Positions 1 through 41,354 of a stretch of 50,480 nt of DNA are shown here, in pieces. A program made the translations under genes and the position numbers. The DNA comes from Candidatus Wolfebacteria bacterium (GTDB lineage Bacteria; Patescibacteriota; Minisyncoccia; Phycocordibacterales; NVSU01). The notes beneath the pieces are model-generated. The model saw only the letters and a list, made by a program, of their open reading frames with translations, searched no databases and was not told the origin of the DNA. The stretch lies in assembly GCA_002401345.1 (NCBI GenBank), contig NVSU01000004.1, positions 628-51,107 of the forward strand, read 5' to 3'. Every line of letters starts with the position of its first letter. Within the stretch, counting starts at the first letter, position 1.

Positions 1-678
1 ATATTCCGGAAGAACCTTGAATACAATTATGAGTGCAGTTAGTATTGCAAAACCACACAAGATTGACGCGACACCGGTACGTGTAACTGTTATAAAAATA
101 TACACCACTGTAGCTGGAACAATAAAGGCTGCATACGCAACTGCCAACCAATAGAGCGCTTTATTTTTCTTATTGTTCTTGTCACGCATGTGAAAGAAAA
201 TCATTGAGATTCCTATAATCAAAAATAGTAAATAATATGCACTGTGCAATAATTTATAGGAACCTAATGAATCAAATATGACAAAATTTCCTGTACATGA
301 TGTTGATATAAATATATCTGGAACAAAAATGATTATAAGTGAAAGAATCACCGCAATGATATACCCTATTTTTGTCCATATAGTTTTTTTAGTTATAAGT
401 GATATTAGGTGTACTCCTAGTATCGGCAGAAACGCTATACTTATAAATGCAATTTTTGACCAGAGGAGTGGTTGAACACCTTTACAGATTAAATATTCAG
501 ATAGCTGAAAAATTCCAAGGATGAATAATAGTAATGCAGAAAGACGACCAAACAAATTCATTCGATATTTTATGATGACATACAGTGCTAACACTATCTC
601 TATAATGAACGTGAGCAGCGTGACTAAGGGAGTGAAACAATATAATGTTATTGAGTTATTTTTCTTAGAACATTTCAT
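1..678 (-). CDS. Polytopic membrane protein, 3' end cut by window edge
   Basis: An open minus-strand frame runs from an ATG at 678 to the window edge without a stop, giving 226 codons. The translation is very hydrophobic, with about seven predicted membrane segments separated by short Lys/Arg-rich loops (for example a loop rich in K and N about residues 165-173), so an inner-membrane protein is likely. I do not recognise the family and see no catalytic motif. The start is the only ATG at the N-terminus and lies exactly at the end of the structured leader copy A (677-813): the terminal repeat itself supplies the AT of the start codon. No Shine-Dalgarno sequence is visible. The true C-terminus lies outside the window. 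Confidence 0.75.
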   Translation of the reverse strand, partial: MKCSKKNNSITLYCFTPLVTLLTFIIEIVLALYVIIKYRMNLFGRLSALLLFILGIFQLSEYLICKGVQPLLWSKIAFISIAFLPILGVHLISLITKKTIWTKIGYIIAVILSLIIIFVPDIFISTSCTGNFVIFDSLGSYKLLHSAYYLLFLIIGISMIFFHMRDKNNKKNKALYWLAVAYAAFIVPATVVYIFITVTRTGVASILCGFAILTALIIVFKVLPEY

Positions 679-813
679 CCCGTAGTGAAAAATGACATTG
701 CTCCTTCAAGAGCATGTGAATCAAAATTTAAATTATTTGTAAAGTTTCGAATTACGTTGTTCATATTAAAAATATAGTATCCAACTAATGTCATTTTCTA
801 CTACGGGATTCAT
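677..813 (-). promoter_or_regulatory. Family 1 structured leader/repeat, copy A
   Basis: A 133-bp element (677-809) reading on the minus strand towards the gene at 678. Its ends are inverted repeats (ATCCCGTAGTAGAAAATGAC and its near complement) able to form a helix of about 20 bp; a small hairpin with GCTC/GAGC arms lies near the 3' end. An ATG directly before it (811-813) opens a 15-codon mini-ORF (766-813) starting M-N-P-V-V-E-N. Nearly identical in sequence to copy B and related to copy C. The A and U of the downstream start codon are paired in the terminal helix. Confidence 0.75.
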
Positions 814-2064: not shown

Positions 2065-2191
2065 GATCCTGTAGTCCCGACGTCCCTAAAATGTCGGGAG
2101 TCGGGAAGCCGATCGTAGCATCGGCTCTCAGTTTGGTTAGAGTGCATCGTTGACATCGATGAGGTCAGAGGTTCAAGTCCTCTCAGGATCA
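2065..2191 (+). tRNA. tRNA-Val (GAC) with a 50-nt insertion before the D-arm
   Basis: The acceptor GATCCTG (2065-2071) pairs 7/7 with CAGGATC (2184-2190). D-stem CTCT/AGAG (2125-2128, 2139-2142), anticodon arm CATCG-TTGACAT-CGATG with anticodon GAC, and T-arm AGAGG-TTCAAGT-CCTCT are all intact; the discriminator is A and CCA is not encoded. Between nucleotide 10 (TAG, 2072-2074) and the D-stem lie 50 extra bases (2075-2124) that fold into two hairpins: TCCCGAC/GTCGGGA and GCCGAT/ATCGGC. Removing them leaves a normal 77-nt tRNA. The insertion is not in the anticodon loop, where bacterial group I introns sit. It could be an uncharacterised intervening sequence, a tolerated expansion, or inactivation. 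Confidence 0.75.
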
Positions 2192-2192
2192 C

Positions 2193-2330
2193 ATGAATCC
2201 CGTAGTAGAAAATAGCATTAGTGGGATACTATATTTTTAATATGAATAACATAATTCGAAACCTTGTAAATAATTTAAATTTCGGTTCACATGCTCTTGA
2301 AGGAGCAATGCCATTTTTCACTACGGGATG
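2193..2330 (+). promoter_or_regulatory. Family 1 structured leader/repeat, copy B
   Basis: A 133-bp element (2197-2329) beginning two bases after the tRNA-Val discriminator region. It has the same terminal inverted repeats as copy A, and the pair that is A-T in copies A and C is G-C here, a compensatory change. The mini-ORF 2193-2240 encodes 15 residues starting M-N-P-V-V-E-N, almost the same peptide as in copy A. The ATG at its 3' boundary (2328-2330) is the first codon of the mini-ORF of the next element, so copies B and D sit in tandem. Confidence 0.75.
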
Positions 2331-2454
2331 AATCCCGTTAGAGATCTAAACGCTATGTAGTGGACTTTACAGAGAATCTACAGATATAATAAAAACAATC
2401 AGAATTTATTACGCATTATACGGAAATCTTTGATTTCCTATCTCTAACGGGATG
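2328..2454 (+). promoter_or_regulatory. Family 1 relative (element D) before a duplicated tsaD start
   Basis: A different sequence with the same design: terminal inverted repeats ATCCCGTTAGAGAT / ATCTCTAACGGGAT (2332-2453, 14 bp), internal hairpins (TGTAG/CTACA; GGAAATC/GATTTCC at 2422-2438), a mini-ORF 2328-2360 starting M-N-P-V and ten codons long, and a 3' boundary that falls on an ATG (2452-2454) followed by the first codons of tsaD. Confidence 0.65.
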
Positions 2455-2589
2455 AAAATATTAAGTATAGAAACCCCAGTACCTCATCGCTTCGCGCTGG
2501 CTACTCGCCTCGCTAATGCTCTGGCGAAGCGGGCGGGGCAAGAAGTAGTGTTACAGATTAATATAAGAAAATTAGTAAAACACGATTGA
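2452..2589 (+). CDS. 45-codon leader ORF from a duplicated tsaD start
   Basis: The 23 bases 2452-2474 are identical to the first 23 bases of tsaD (2595-2617), so this ORF starts M-K-I-L-S-I-E-T like TsaD and then runs through a GC-rich palindromic stretch (CGCTTCGC...GCGAAGCG, about 2490-2530) to a TGA at 2587-2589, five bases before the tsaD ATG. It is probably a relic of an insertion into the tsaD start, and could act as a leader peptide coupled to tsaD. A free-standing function is unlikely. Confidence 0.5.
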   Translation: MKILSIETPVPHRFALATRLANALAKRAGQEVVLQINIRKLVKHD

Positions 2590-9846: not shown

Positions 9847-9875
9847 TTTGTGTCCCCGGACTGAGTCGAACAGTC
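9847..9875. repeat. 29-bp direct repeat, left copy (tRNA-Arg 3' end fragment)
   Basis: Identical over 29 bases to 11012-11040. On the minus strand it reads as a tRNA T-arm and acceptor 3' strand (GACTG-TTCGACT-CAGTC-CGGGGAC-A) without the rest of the tRNA. Together the two copies bracket the regulator gene 9937-10917. Confidence 0.85.
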
Positions 9876-9936: not shown

Positions 9937-10917
9937 CTATTTTCTTGGTTGAATTGGCATTACATCACTATATGCAATGTCATATTTCTCAAGAAGTTCG
10001 TCAAGTTCATTCATAGACTTTGAACCAAAATTTCTCATTCCTAAATATTCATGTCTAGGAAAAGACGCAATATGACCTAAAGAAATATTTCCAAGGCTTC
10101 GAATTCCATAATAGCGCAAGATGACTGCCCGAATACAATTACTTAATCTGACAGACACATCAAGTTCCAATAATGATTTAGAAAGAACTTTTATCTTGTC
10201 ATCTCCAAGACCTTGCTTCGATTTATCAGTCTCTTCCTTTGATTGATATTGAAGCAATTTTTGTTCAAGTTTATTAATAATTTGTCCTTGCAGTCTAACT
10301 TTTTCACAATACTCTTTATACTGTAACATTCGTTCATCGAATCTTCTCATTTTATATATTACATACCTTAAACCTTTCTGAAATATTTGACGAACTCGTT
10401 CACTCGTAAGATCAAATTTTTCAGAAATCTCGTCAAAAGTATTATTCTCAAATAAGACTAAATACAAGACTTCATCTTGTCTTGAAAAACGAGACTGTTC
10501 ATTAAGAAAAACTTTTTTGAATAGATCTTGAAAAAATTCAAGTTTTTCAATTCTGTCATGAAATCCTGTATACCATGTAAGTTTAAATTTCATATATTCC
10601 TCTGTCTCATTTCTCACAAATAAAAGTTTTGAACCCCTTTTATTTGATAAACGAAGATGAGGAAATTTATCTTTGAGGCAAAGATTTCTAATCGTTGACA
10701 TGCTAATGCCAGTTAGTACATACACCTCATCAATCAACAATAACGGTTCATCTAATGACACTTTTAATTTCTTCTCAAGTTTATCTTTGTCAATAAATAA
10801 TTTATTTCCTTCATATACAGGTTTAGGTAAAACTCCTTTTTGTATATATCTTGAAATAGAACTCTTATTATGTTGGATAAGAGTTGCAACTTCATCAAGT
10901 GAGAGCATATTGTTCAT
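9937..10917 (-). CDS. Putative regulator: double HTH, sigma4-like, alpha-CTD-like
   Basis: A 326-residue DNA-binding protein with an unusual domain order. Residues 4-45 (DEVATLIQHNKSSISRYIQ) and about 57-105 (DEVYVLTGISMSTIRNLC) look like two excisionase/MerR-type helix-turn-helix units. Residues 155-190 (FDEISEKFDLTSERVRQIF) match a sigma-70 region 4. A coiled segment follows (195-235), then about 260-320 (GIRSLGNISLGHIASF, GMRNFGSKSMNELDELL) resembles the RNA polymerase alpha C-terminal domain. Known of the parts: all contact DNA or polymerase. Inferred: a transcription regulator. It sits alone between tRNA-derived direct repeats, with its own terminator. No recombinase is nearby. ATG 10908 is an alternative start. 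Confidence 0.65.
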   Translation of the reverse strand: MNNMLSLDEVATLIQHNKSSISRYIQKGVLPKPVYEGNKLFIDKDKLEKKLKVSLDEPLLLIDEVYVLTGISMSTIRNLCLKDKFPHLRLSNKRGSKLLFVRNETEEYMKFKLTWYTGFHDRIEKLEFFQDLFKKVFLNEQSRFSRQDEVLYLVLFENNTFDEISEKFDLTSERVRQIFQKGLRYVIYKMRRFDERMLQYKEYCEKVRLQGQIINKLEQKLLQYQSKEETDKSKQGLGDDKIKVLSKSLLELDVSVRLSNCIRAVILRYYGIRSLGNISLGHIASFPRHEYLGMRNFGSKSMNELDELLEKYDIAYSDVMPIQPRK

Positions 10918-11011: not shown

Positions 11012-11040
11012 TTTGTGTCCCCGGACTGAGTCGAACAGTC
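11012..11040. repeat. 29-bp direct repeat, right copy
   Basis: Same 29 bases as 9847-9875; here they form the T-arm and acceptor 3' strand of the tRNA-Arg-like gene at 11016-11119. Confidence 0.85.
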
Positions 11041-11119
11041 AGCTGCTCCTTAGGAGGGAGCCGTTTTATCCATTAAATCCCGACGTTACAGTCGGGACCC
11101 CGACCTTGCGTCGGGGCTA
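11016..11119 (-). tRNA. tRNA-Arg (CCT)-like gene with hairpin insert and displaced 5' acceptor
   Basis: The minus strand shows D-loop TTTAATGGATAAA, anticodon arm GCTCC-CTCCTAA-GGAGC (anticodon CCT), T-arm GACTG-TTCGACT-CAGTC and acceptor 3' strand CGGGGAC with discriminator A at 11016. Before the D-arm, directly after a TAG (11117-11119), are two hairpins in 39 bases (11078-11116: CCCCGAC/GTCGGGG and TCCCGAC/GTCGGGA), the same position as the insert in tRNA-Val. No matching 5' acceptor strand adjoins; the only GTCCCCG nearby is at 11481-11487, beyond another whole tRNA. It may be a tRNA broken by insertion or a very unusual split gene. Confidence 0.5.
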
Positions 11120-11406: not shown

Positions 11407-11478
11407 TGCCCTCATCAGGAATCGAACCTAAATCTAGTCCTTAGGAGGGACTTGTTTTATCCATTAAACTATGAGGGC
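11407..11478 (-). tRNA. tRNA-Arg (CCT)
   Basis: A complete 72-nt tRNA: acceptor GCCCTCA/TGAGGGC, D-arm GTTT...AAAC, anticodon arm AGTCC-CTCCTAA-GGACT (CCT), T-arm TTAGG-TTCGATT-CCTGA, discriminator A, no CCA. It lies two bases after GTCCCCG (11481-11487), which is the exact complement of the acceptor 3' strand of the broken tRNA-Arg at 11016-11119. Confidence 0.9.
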
Positions 11479-38606: not shown

Positions 38607-39281
38607 ATGATAGAATTATTTTTATTTTTTATTATTCTTGTTATTGGAATAGTAAGCACAGCCTTATGGTTTCAAGAAACACACGTTATCGCACCTGTAA
38701 GCACTCTGTCTCTTGATAAACGTATCGTCTCACGAAAAAAAATGAGCCAGTGGACTCCAAGGAATCATGTACTCATTGAATTTCTTCCAGTCGTGCACGC
38801 TCATCTCATGAATACAAACGTACATGCAGTGCTCGAGAAATTGGGATATAGAATGCTCTCAGAGAGAGAAAAATATATTATCAGAAAGCAATATTCATAT
38901 GAATCAAGCTTTACTAACTTTATCGTTGTATTTCCGCACAAAAAAGGATCGAACTTACATACGAGTGGTATCTCGTGCATACAGTGGACTGAAAATGGTG
39001 TCACGTATACCAGTGATGCATCTCGACATAACATTCAGTGTGTAATGAGAATGAAAAAATACATTCTTAAAGACTCTTTGGTGAATTCATTCTATGTAGG
39101 TGTCACGAGGAATAAAACGACACTATGGACAACAATTCTTGATCGCACGTATGATATCAAAGTAGCACTGTCTGCTTTATTAATTTTCATTAAAAATAAA
39201 GCCCAAAAAGCTCTCACACAGAGAGCTTTTTTTTATATCCCTGTGATACACTTAGGGCATGAATCCCGTAGTAGAAAATGA
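38607..39281 (+). CDS. Hypothetical protein with N-terminal membrane helix
   Basis: 224 residues from ATG 38607. A hydrophobic helix at about residues 2-22 is followed by a soluble, basic region (LIEFLPVVHAHLMNTNVHAV, 20 residues; GSNLHTSGISCIQW). No family recognised. The frame runs straight through a strong terminator (39207-39233) and closes on a TGA inside leader copy C at 39279-39281, so the last about 25 residues may be an accident and the ancestral stop may have been lost. Confidence 0.55.
   Translation: MIELFLFFIILVIGIVSTALWFQETHVIAPVSTLSLDKRIVSRKKMSQWTPRNHVLIEFLPVVHAHLMNTNVHAVLEKLGYRMLSEREKYIIRKQYSYESSFTNFIVVFPHKKGSNLHTSGISCIQWTENGVTYTSDASRHNIQCVMRMKKYILKDSLVNSFYVGVTRNKTTLWTTILDRTYDIKVALSALLIFIKNKAQKALTQRAFFYIPVIHLGHESRSRK
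39207..39233 (+). terminator. Terminator inside the end of the 38607-39281 frame
   Basis: AAAAGCTCTC ACACA GAGAGCTTTTTTTT, a canonical terminator. Confidence 0.85.
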
Positions 39282-39395
39282 CATTATGGGAACATCATAG
39301 TGTATGTATTGTAGTAAGTCGAAATTGTATAAGTAATTAATAATATGTGGCATACATGCTCCTTAAAGAGCGATGTCATTTTTCACTACGGGATG
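39259..39395 (+). promoter_or_regulatory. Family 1 structured leader/repeat, copy C, before priA
   Basis: 132-bp element (39263-39394). Its terminal inverted repeats match copies A and B, the middle is diverged, and the GCTC/GAGC hairpin near the 3' end is kept. Mini-ORF 39259-39300 starts M-N-P-V-V-E-N-D-I. The 3' boundary CTACGGGAT runs into the priA start codon (ATG 39393-39395). Confidence 0.75.
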
Positions 39396-41354
39396 AAAAT
39401 AGTTAGTGTAATTCCATATTCTAAGGGGATTCACAAGGAAACGCTCACCTATTTCAGTTCAAAAGATATTCCTGTGGGAAGTATTGTGACTGTTCCTGTG
39501 AGAAAAAAACTTGTGACCGCATTTGTGACTGAGTCTAAAGATCTTCTCAAGGCAAAGTCTGATGTGAAGTCATCCTCGTTTAATTTAAAAAAAGTTGATT
39601 CGATTGTTGGGCCTTCTCTGTTTAATCAGGAGTTCTTTTACACCGTACGTGACCTTAAAAAATATTATGCGACTCATTCAAGTTTACTGTTTAGTTCCCT
39701 CATTCCAACACTCTTTCTAAAAAAGTACGCACAACTTACGCTTCCTCATATTGCTTCAGAAAAAAGTACCTCGTCTATACGACAAGAAAAATTATTATTC
39801 CAATCTCCTGATGAGGAACGATTGAGTTACTACAAAACCTATATTCGTGAATCATTTGCAAAAGGTGAGTCGCTTTTTATATGTCTTCCAAATAGTAATG
39901 ACATACAAACTTTTCTTCCAATAATTAGCAAAGGGATCGAACAATATGTATTTGTGCTTCATGGTGCCCTTACAGATAAAAAACAAATTGAGGTCTATAA
40001 TAAACTTATTGATGAAACACACCCTGTGGTAATTATCGCAACAGGGTCATATCTCTTTGTTCCACGCAATGATATTGGAACTATCATTGTTGAGCGAGAA
40101 AGTTCATCTACATATAAAACATTCACACGTCCCTATATTGACATGCGAATCGTTGCTGAAATCTATTCTCACTATTTAAATGCCAAGCTCATATACGCAG
40201 ATACATATTTACGAACGGAGACACTGTGGAGACATGATCAAAACGAGTTCTCTGAAGTAGATCAATTTAATTTTAGACCACCTATTCAATTGAAACATCC
40301 TATTATAGATGTAAGAAAAAATATTAAAGACGAACCACAAAAAAAATCTAAAAAATTCTCGGCATTAAATGATGAAGTACTTCAACTTATACACACTGCA
40401 TTAAAAGAAAATAGGAAAATATTCCTCTTTGTACTCCGGAAAGGTCTCGCGGGGATAACGGTCTGTAACGACTGTGGAACAGCAGTACTTTGTGAATCGT
40501 GCTCGGTACCAATGACACTTTTCAATCAGAAAAATAAGATCACCCATAAAGGCAAAAAAGAAAGCATATTCATATGTAATAAATGTAGAGCAGTTAAGAG
40601 AACAAATGTGATATGTAAAGAATGTGATAGCTGGAATCTCGTATCACTTGGAATTGGAATTGAAAGCGTACTAAAGGAAGTCAAGAATGAATTTAGTGAT
40701 GCCAAAGTATTTGTAATTGAAGGTGAAACTGTGAAGACAAAAACTCAGGGTAAAAAAATTATCTCTGAGTTTAATTCATCCACCAATGGAATACTTGTGG
40801 GGACCGAAATGGCACTTTCATATATAAATGAGAAAGTTGATGAGAGTGTGGTGGTCTCATTTGATTCATTGTTCTCAATTCCGGGGTTTAGAATTAATGA
40901 AAGGGTTCTCAAACTTCTTACTTCTCTTTCCTCAATTTCTAAAAACTCGGTACGTATACAAACCAAGAATCCTGATGAATCAATTCTTACACATATTCAA
41001 GAGAGGACCATGGTTGATTTTTTCAGAGAAGAATTAAAGCTGAGAAAACAATTCAACTATCCTCCTTTTTCGACACTTATTAAAATCAGTTTCAGTGGAA
41101 ATACAAAAGATGTAGAAAAAGCTCATGATATGTTTCATACATTATTTAATTCATACCCCCTTGAACTATTCAGGTCAGTTATTACCAAAGGTAAGCGCTT
41201 GCATGCTATACACGCAATACTCAGAATTGATCGATCTACATGGGCACTCCCCTCACGTGGTACTAAAGGCGAGCTCGACACATTGCTTCTCGAAAAACTC
41301 ATCTCTCTCCCTCCTTCATATATAGTACATATCGATCCAGAGGATCTGTTGTAA
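39393..41354 (+). CDS. priA: PriA-like primosomal protein lacking helicase motifs
   Basis: 653 residues. The N-terminal DNA-binding domain (VIPYSKGIHKETLTYFS, VPVRKKLVTAFV) and the C-terminal zinc region (CNDCGTAVLCESCSVPMTLF, CNKCR, CKECDS; eight Cys) match PriA, as do GIGIESVLKEV and FPPF-type NYPPFSTLIKIS. But the Walker A segment (TGSGKTE) is absent, DEEH is replaced by VERESSS, and the QVAGRAGR motif is replaced by LSSISKNSVRIQ. It is thus unlikely to be an ATPase or helicase and may be a scaffold for replisome loading. Start at 39393, at the end of leader copy C; an ATG at 39345 would include the repeat. Confidence 0.85.
   Translation: MKIVSVIPYSKGIHKETLTYFSSKDIPVGSIVTVPVRKKLVTAFVTESKDLLKAKSDVKSSSFNLKKVDSIVGPSLFNQEFFYTVRDLKKYYATHSSLLFSSLIPTLFLKKYAQLTLPHIASEKSTSSIRQEKLLFQSPDEERLSYYKTYIRESFAKGESLFICLPNSNDIQTFLPIISKGIEQYVFVLHGALTDKKQIEVYNKLIDETHPVVIIATGSYLFVPRNDIGTIIVERESSSTYKTFTRPYIDMRIVAEIYSHYLNAKLIYADTYLRTETLWRHDQNEFSEVDQFNFRPPIQLKHPIIDVRKNIKDEPQKKSKKFSALNDEVLQLIHTALKENRKIFLFVLRKGLAGITVCNDCGTAVLCESCSVPMTLFNQKNKITHKGKKESIFICNKCRAVKRTNVICKECDSWNLVSLGIGIESVLKEVKNEFSDAKVFVIEGETVKTKTQGKKIISEFNSSTNGILVGTEMALSYINEKVDESVVVSFDSLFSIPGFRINERVLKLLTSLSSISKNSVRIQTKNPDESILTHIQERTMVDFFREELKLRKQFNYPPFSTLIKISFSGNTKDVEKAHDMFHTLFNSYPLELFRSVITKGKRLHAIHAILRIDRSTWALPSRGTKGELDTLLLEKLISLPPSYIVHIDPEDLL

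What the first reader, a model, noticed from the sequence alone, without database searches (positions are those of the whole stretch)
2065..2191. tRNA-Val with a two-hairpin insertion between nucleotide 10 and the D-stem
All four tRNA stems are perfect, yet 50 bases separate the acceptor/TAG from the D-stem. Bacterial tRNA introns are group I and lie in the anticodon loop. The insert is too small for a self-splicing intron and consists of two hairpins.
Basis: partly seen in the sequence, partly recalled or inferred. Interest (0 to 1): 0.65.

Follow-up and report, generated by a model that had tools for sequence, protein, structure and literature searches.

The report
Double-hairpin element inserted in tRNA-Val
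A 52-base pair of DNA hairpins sits inside a valine tRNA gene of an uncultured Parcubacterium; it is one copy of a hairpin repeat that, across Parcubacteria, is concentrated at the same spot of tRNA genes next to GIY-YIG nuclease genes and duplicated tRNA starts, so the gene is more probably knocked out by a mobile repeat than carrying a new kind of intron.

Summary
tRNA-Val(GAC) is split between nt 10 (window 2074) and nt 11 (2127) by 52 nt that fold into two abutting hairpins with 7-bp stems (DNA fold z -4.9; 0 of 200 shuffles fold as well).

It is not an intron of a known type. It belongs to a family of double-hairpin repeats. A core pattern hit 27 of 397 genomes of the order (control 0). 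A tRNA-site pattern scanned over about 85,000 species hit 17 loci, all MAGs; those with a named lineage are Parcubacteria-group. The repeat usually follows AG (43/53 sites), and about a quarter to a third of sites lie in tRNA-derived sequence. At least 15 of the 17 loci read: copy of tRNA nt 1-10, doublet, nt 11 onward, spacer or ~90-aa GIY-YIG ORF, then the same tRNA intact. Other Parcubacterial tRNAs show this arrangement with different hairpins.

The window's tRNA-Val lacks the rebuilt intact copy, so it is most likely a solo insertion or collapsed element that disables a tRNA whose job tRNA-Val(TAC) can share. Retained function is not excluded: no RNA data, genome 92% complete. The tRNA/GIY-YIG arrangement appears undescribed in the papers searched.

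The parts
2065..2074 (+). tRNA-Val(GAC) nt 1-10: acceptor 5' strand GATCCTG plus TAG
   Evidence: Pairs 7/7 with 2184-2190; an intact tRNA-Val(GAC) with a near-identical GATCCT acceptor strand exists in L072.
2075..2106 (+). Hairpin 1 of the inserted doublet (stem TCCCGAC/GTCGGGA, with an inner stem)
   Evidence: DNA and RNA folds; aligns with the first doublet of L122.
2107..2126 (+). Hairpin 2 of the inserted doublet (stem AGCCGAT/ATCGGCT, loop CGTAGC)
   Evidence: DNA and RNA folds; abuts hairpin 1 without linker, as in other family members.
2127..2193 (+). tRNA-Val(GAC) nt 11 to 3' CA: D arm, anticodon arm (GAC), T arm, acceptor 3' strand
   Evidence: ARAGORN and Rfam tRNA match.
11078..11116 (-). 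Second doublet of the window, directly 5' of a broken tRNA-Arg(CCT) body, at the same site (after TAG, before TTTAATGG)
11012..11077 (-). Broken tRNA-Arg(CCT) copy behind that doublet; its own 5' acceptor strand is missing next to it
   Evidence: Rfam tRNA 29.9 bits; sequence.
11407..11478 (-). Intact tRNA-Arg(CCT)

Best explanation
The insert is one copy of a mobile double-hairpin repeat found in Parcubacteria: two abutting GC-rich hairpins with 7-bp stems, inserted 3' of an AG, here the GTAG at tRNA nt 7-10. Shown: family membership, the identical site in many tRNAs, association with duplicated tRNA 5' ends and with GIY-YIG ORFs. Inferred: in tRNA genes the hairpins mark the left part of an intron-less GIY-YIG homing-type element (or its ORF-less derivative) that enters the 5' part of a tRNA gene and leaves a broken left copy plus a rebuilt intact tRNA. 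Inferred for the window: tRNA-Val(GAC) carries only the hairpin part, either by direct insertion or by a deletion between the two CTCAG repeats that removed the cargo and the rebuilt nt 1-10. The gene then makes no normal tRNA, and tRNA-Val(UAC) probably reads all GUN codons.
For: Same anatomy as other family members. Same site between nt 10 and 11 in the own genome at Lys, Thr and Arg copies. 27 of 397 order genomes carry the core pattern, control 0; 43 of 53 distinct sites follow AG, 29 follow TAG, and 12 are tRNA left copies by an automatic test. 17 loci in about 85,000 species for the tRNA-site pattern; at least 15 show left copy, doublet, spacer or GIY-YIG ORF, intact tRNA. GIY-YIG identity of three ORFs: PF01541 E 5e-14 to 2e-15. 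From the ORF side: 18 of 65 small GIY-YIG ORFs end at a tRNA, 11 of these with the tRNA 5' end duplicated upstream. Duplicated tRNA 5' ends: 9/54, 11/20 and 21/46 in three locus sets against 0, 1 and 2 for a reversed-query null. Intact tRNA-Val(TAC); Ala, Thr and Pro boxes each have a single U34 tRNA in the assembly.
Against: The tRNA halves show no decay. At least 219 of 297 order genomes keep a tRNA-Val(GAC) signature, so losing it is not usual. No ORF, spacer or duplicated 5' end remains at the Val locus, so a link to the GIY-YIG element there rests on the hairpins alone. About two thirds or more of the doublets lie outside tRNAs, so the hairpins may move independently. The mobilising enzyme is not identified.
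Confidence: 0.68

Rival explanations
1. The tRNA-Val(GAC) is functional. The two hairpins are kept as an extra pair of arms at the acceptor/D-arm junction, or are removed at RNA level by an unknown route.
For: All tRNA stems and conserved positions are intact; the predicted fold of the interrupted RNA keeps the acceptor and T stems with the hairpins as a separate block; no other GAC copy is in the assembly; GAC is usually retained in the order.
Against: The acceptor match follows automatically if the insertion is recent. The minimum-energy fold of the interrupted RNA loses the normal D and anticodon arms. No second case of a complete tRNA body behind a doublet without an intact copy was found, although the search only saw canonical D arms. 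No known splicing signal: no Rfam intron.
Confidence: 0.15
2. The hairpins are a REP (repetitive extragenic palindrome) pair moved by a Y1/RAYT transposase that cuts next to GTAG; the tRNA link only reflects the GTAG in tRNA genes.
For: 29 of 53 sites follow TAG and most others follow AG; GTAG-tagged REP dimers are known (PMC3733652); the genome encodes one Y1/RAYT-like protein.
Against: That gene is flanked by a different palindrome, CTTAGACGTC-g-GACGTCTAAG. Copy number is low (at most 6 core-pattern doublets per genome). REP movement does not explain duplicated tRNA 5' ends or GIY-YIG ORFs.
Confidence: 0.2
3. Assembly artefact or collapsed repeat: an intact copy existed beside a left copy and the assembler joined the two.
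For: The genome is in 24 contigs and 92% complete, and full tRNA-Asp, tRNA-Met and tRNA-Lys(UUU) genes were not found. The start of C8 and the end of C16 show alternative left flanks of one doublet.
Against: The gene lies inside a 58.8-kb contig with flanking repeats of other kinds only. Reads cannot be inspected here.
Confidence: 0.12

Closest known systems
Double-hairpin / repetitive hairpin-forming elements of mitochondrial DNA (Allomyces DHE, sponge RHE; PMC2800124)
   Same: Two adjacent hairpins, potentially mobile, inserted in RNA genes, coding and intergenic DNA.
   Different: Other genomes; no described link to duplicated tRNA 5' ends; sequences not compared here.
GTAG-tagged REP dimers and TnpA-REP/RAYT (PMC3733652, PMC8266576)
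   Same: Palindrome pairs, AG or GTAG on one side, loops variable and stems conserved.
   Different: Low copy number; the RAYT of this genome has other palindromes; concentration in tRNA genes and link to GIY-YIG ORFs.
Phage T4/T6 SegB, free-standing GIY-YIG homing endonuclease (PMC13096335)
   Same: GIY-YIG nuclease gene beside tRNA genes, with microhomology between the tRNA 5' end and the 3' end of the nuclease gene; nuclease-dependent tRNA duplication.
   Different: Phage system; no hairpin-bearing left copies described; ORFs here are ~90 aa and several end inside the tRNA; activity untested.
Insertion sequences in CPR rRNA genes (PMC11270868)
   Same: Same bacterial radiation; homing endonucleases, including GIY-YIG, in structural RNA genes.
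   Different: Mostly introns with LAGLIDADG ORFs in rRNA; tRNA is not mentioned in that paper.

Membership tests
Parcubacterial double-hairpin repeat (defined here) | Two abutting hairpins with 7-bp GC-rich stems and no linker | tested here: met
   Folds of the Val insert and of other copies give the same structure.
Parcubacterial double-hairpin repeat (defined here) | Insertion 3' of (T)AG, in tRNA genes between nt 10 and 11 | tested here: met
   GTAG at 2071-2074; 43/53 family sites follow AG, 29 follow TAG.
GIY-YIG tRNA element (broken 5' copy, ORF, intact tRNA) | GIY-YIG ORF and rebuilt intact tRNA at the locus | tested here: not met
   Neither is present at the window Val locus; met in L142, L143, L144, L219 and at own tRNA-Asn and tRNA-Glu.
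GIY-YIG tRNA element (broken 5' copy, ORF, intact tRNA) | Nuclease cuts uninvaded tRNA genes | not testable with these tools
   Needs biochemistry.
REP / RAYT system | Cognate RAYT gene flanked by the same palindrome | tested here: not met
   The one RAYT-like gene found is flanked by CTTAGACGTC palindromes; 8% of the genome is missing.
REP / RAYT system | GTAG tag beside the palindrome | tested here: met
   GTAG at the Val insert; TAG at 29 of 53 family sites.
Group I or II intron | Catalytic core matched by Rfam models | tested here: not met
   No intron match at gathering or at E up to 1; the insert is 52 nt.
Archaeal-type tRNA intron | Bulge-helix-bulge at the exon junctions | tested here: not met
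   Predicted fold leaves both junctions outside any exon-intron helix.

The most novel reading that the evidence does not exclude
Parcubacteria host an undescribed class of intron-less GIY-YIG mobile elements that invade the 5' part of tRNA genes: they leave a hairpin-bearing broken copy of the tRNA start, rebuild an intact tRNA downstream (in several cases using its TAG at nt 8-10 as the ORF stop codon), and shed solo double hairpins such as the one in the window's tRNA-Val.
Probability: 0.5. Interest if true: 0.75.

Novelty: new variant of a known kind. Interest (0 to 1): 0.6.

Why it matters
It ties a puzzling interrupted tRNA to a recurrent pattern in one of the largest uncultured bacterial groups: hairpin doublets, duplicated tRNA 5' ends and small GIY-YIG nucleases at tRNA genes. 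It suggests a role for some of the abundant small GIY-YIG ORFs of Parcubacteria, and may explain some odd or missing tRNA annotations in these genomes. It would be a bacterial counterpart of mitochondrial double-hairpin elements and of phage SegB. If the interrupted tRNA proved functional, it would be a new kind of bacterial tRNA gene.

Tried and rejected
Group I/II and archaeal-type introns: no Rfam match, 52 nt, no bulge-helix-bulge. Split tRNAs: the partial tRNA-Asp (C15) lies beside what reads by eye as a tyrosine integrase gene and looks like an attachment site; the partial tRNA-Met (C24) lies on a contig that looks unlike the rest of the genome; no 5' halves were found near either. RAYT as sole mover: its palindromes differ. 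L122 (G396) first looked like a twice-interrupted tRNA-Phe without a partner, but an intact tRNA-Phe lies just upstream. Viral contigs: no doublet of either pattern. A fixed-length target-site duplication: repeats around the GIY-YIG ORFs range from 9 to 90 nt. Genus and family searches held only this genome, so the insertion could not be dated. The tRNA-Val(GAC) census uses a strict motif and gives only a lower bound.

Full report
OBSERVATION. The two halves of a tRNA-Val(GAC) lie at 2065-2074 and 2127-2193, separated by 52 nt inserted between nt 10 and nt 11. ARAGORN and Rfam detect only the body behind the insert. The insert folds as two directly abutting hairpins with 7-bp stems and no linker: RNA z -5.4, DNA z -4.9, no shuffle folding as well. 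In related genomes of the order every hit called tRNA-Val(GAC), other than the window gene, runs uninterrupted through this point. An intact relative with a near-identical GATCCT acceptor strand exists (L072), so the 5' half is plausibly the native one.

FAMILY. The whole insert is single-copy in the 897-kb, 92%-complete genome. Hairpins CCCGAC-n-GTCGGG, however, occur at 19 sites with 0 control matches, several of them as doublets. Three doublets sit at exactly the same place of other tRNAs: upstream of tRNA-Lys (CCGCCTGTAG[doublet]CTCAG...CCGCCTGTAGCTCAGTTGG), upstream of tRNA-Thr (GCCGGAGTAG[doublet]CTCAGTTG...GCCGGAGTAGCTCAGTTGG), and in a broken tRNA-Arg(CCT) copy in the window at 11012-11116. 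A core pattern hits 27 of 397 genomes of the order with 0 control matches. Of 53 distinct sites, 43 have AG and 29 have TAG on the 5' side; 12 are tRNA left copies by an automatic test, and a few more lie inside tRNA copies by eye. By eye the others lie in sequence resembling the ribosomal L10 leader (three sites; Rfam did not report it at the gathering cut-off), in apparently coding DNA and between genes. The Val insert aligns end to end with the first doublet of L122, with compensatory changes in a closing pair and in an inner pair.

DISTRIBUTION AND ARCHITECTURE. A scan of about 85,000 species for TAG-doublet-YTCA gave 17 loci, all in MAGs; those named to a lineage are Parcubacteria-group (Kaiser-, Lipton-, Yanofsky-, Nomura-, Moran-, Niyogi-, Wolfe-, Doudnabacteria). 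At least 15 of the 17 show [tRNA nt 1-10][doublet][nt 11 onward][short spacer or ORF][same tRNA intact], for Ala, Thr, Val, Lys, Gly, Arg, Phe, Asn and others; in L141 only the start of the intact tRNA is held, in L129 the two starts differ at several bases, and L138 is cut off by the end of the stored DNA. In L142, L143, L144 and the truncated L138 the space holds a GIY-YIG ORF (L138 by eye). In L142 and L144 its TAG stop codon is nt 8-10 of the intact tRNA. L139 is a tRNA-Val(GAC) with this arrangement and an intact copy.

INDEPENDENT APPROACH FROM THE ORF SIDE. Of 65 small GIY-YIG ORFs in 31 genomes, 18 end next to a same-strand tRNA and 11 of these have the tRNA 5' end duplicated upstream of the ORF. 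Those left copies carry hairpins of other sequences, for example TCCGCCAGCTGGCGGA at the own tRNA-Asn and TCGGCCCGGGGCCGA-CCAGCCTAGGGCTGG at a tRNA-Ser. Four of these ORFs (L165, L197, L198, L199) end exactly at tRNA nt 10. Exact repeats of at least 11 nt bracket 25% of the ORFs against 0.9% in shuffles; their length runs from 9 to 90 nt, so this is not a fixed-length target-site duplication. tRNA 5'-end duplications are also common at tRNAs fetched for other reasons: 9/54 against 0/54 for a reversed-query null. In the own genome left copies were found for Gly(GCC), Asn, Glu, Lys, Leu(TAG) and Thr.

MECHANISM. The data fit a homing-type element that enters the 5' region of a tRNA gene and rebuilds it, with hairpins in the left copy. 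Which enzyme moves the hairpins, and whether the hairpins keep the left copy from being cut again, are inferences. A Y1/RAYT-like protein is encoded in the genome, but it is flanked by a different palindrome and is a weaker candidate. Nuclease activity of the GIY-YIG proteins has not been tested. Most doublets lie outside tRNAs, so the hairpins may also move on their own.

THE VALINE GENE. Unlike almost all others, the window gene has a complete body directly behind the doublet and no intact copy nearby. A search for canonical D arms lacking G10 in 397 genomes found 8 sites. Seven are left-copy types or degenerate copies and one (L221) is an odd tRNA-like sequence. That search cannot see non-canonical D arms such as the Val one. 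Direct insertion, or deletion between the CTCAG repeats of a former element, would both give this structure. The intact tRNA-Val(TAC), and single U34 tRNAs for Ala, Thr and Pro in the same assembly, make its loss tolerable; but full tRNA-Asp, tRNA-Met and tRNA-Lys(UUU) genes are also missing from the assembly, so absence there is weak evidence. Against loss, at least 219 of 297 genomes keep a tRNA-Val(GAC) signature and the gene body shows no decay. I put about 0.7 on a disabled or redundant gene and 0.15 on a functional one.

KNOWN RELATIVES. Mitochondrial double-hairpin elements (PMC2800124), GTAG REP dimers (PMC3733652, PMC8266576) and phage SegB (PMC13096335, with microhomology between segB and tRNA ends) each resemble part of the picture. 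A study of insertions in CPR rRNA genes (PMC11270868) does not mention tRNA. No paper in the library combined GIY-YIG, tRNA gene and Parcubacteria. The library lacks most subscription journals, so novelty is provisional.

Noticed in passing
window 674-813, 2193-2332, 39259-39398: Three copies of a ~140-bp palindromic MITE-like element with ends ATCCCGTAGT/ACTACGGGAT; one starts right at the 3' end of the tRNA-Val.
   Followed up: partly
window 2330-2455: A different element with ends CCCGTTAGAGAT/ATCTCTAACGGG; similar ends occur next to several GIY-YIG ORFs in related genomes (for example L202, L205, L210).
   Followed up: no
window 2452-2474 and 2595-2617: The first 23 nt of tsaD (ATGAAAATATTAAGTATAGAAAC) are duplicated around a short, partly GC-rich stretch, which resembles the tRNA left copies but at a protein gene.
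   Followed up: no
window 9847-9875 and 11012-11040: A perfect 29-bp repeat of the 3' end of the broken tRNA-Arg flanks an ORF (9937-10917) with HTH, sigma-70 region 4 and RNA polymerase alpha CTD matches: perhaps a small integrated element.
   Followed up: partly
L077 (own C12) 1217-1930: RAYT-like gene with three copies of the palindrome CTTAGACGTC-g-GACGTCTAAG: upstream, inside the ORF and downstream.
   Followed up: partly
L215, L216, L217, L222: Miniaturised tRNA-Phe 5' copies (two in tandem in L216/L222) ahead of the intact tRNA-Phe, each altered between acceptor strand and D arm, as if from repeated invasions.
   Followed up: partly
L211, L155, L213: GIY-YIG ORFs directly ahead of what reads by eye as RNase P RNA (L211) or inside 16S rRNA (L155, L213), so the target range may be wider than tRNAs.
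   Followed up: no
L080, L081, L104: Doublets inserted at AGACAG^CAGG in sequence that resembles the ribosomal protein L10 leader in three genomes.
   Followed up: partly
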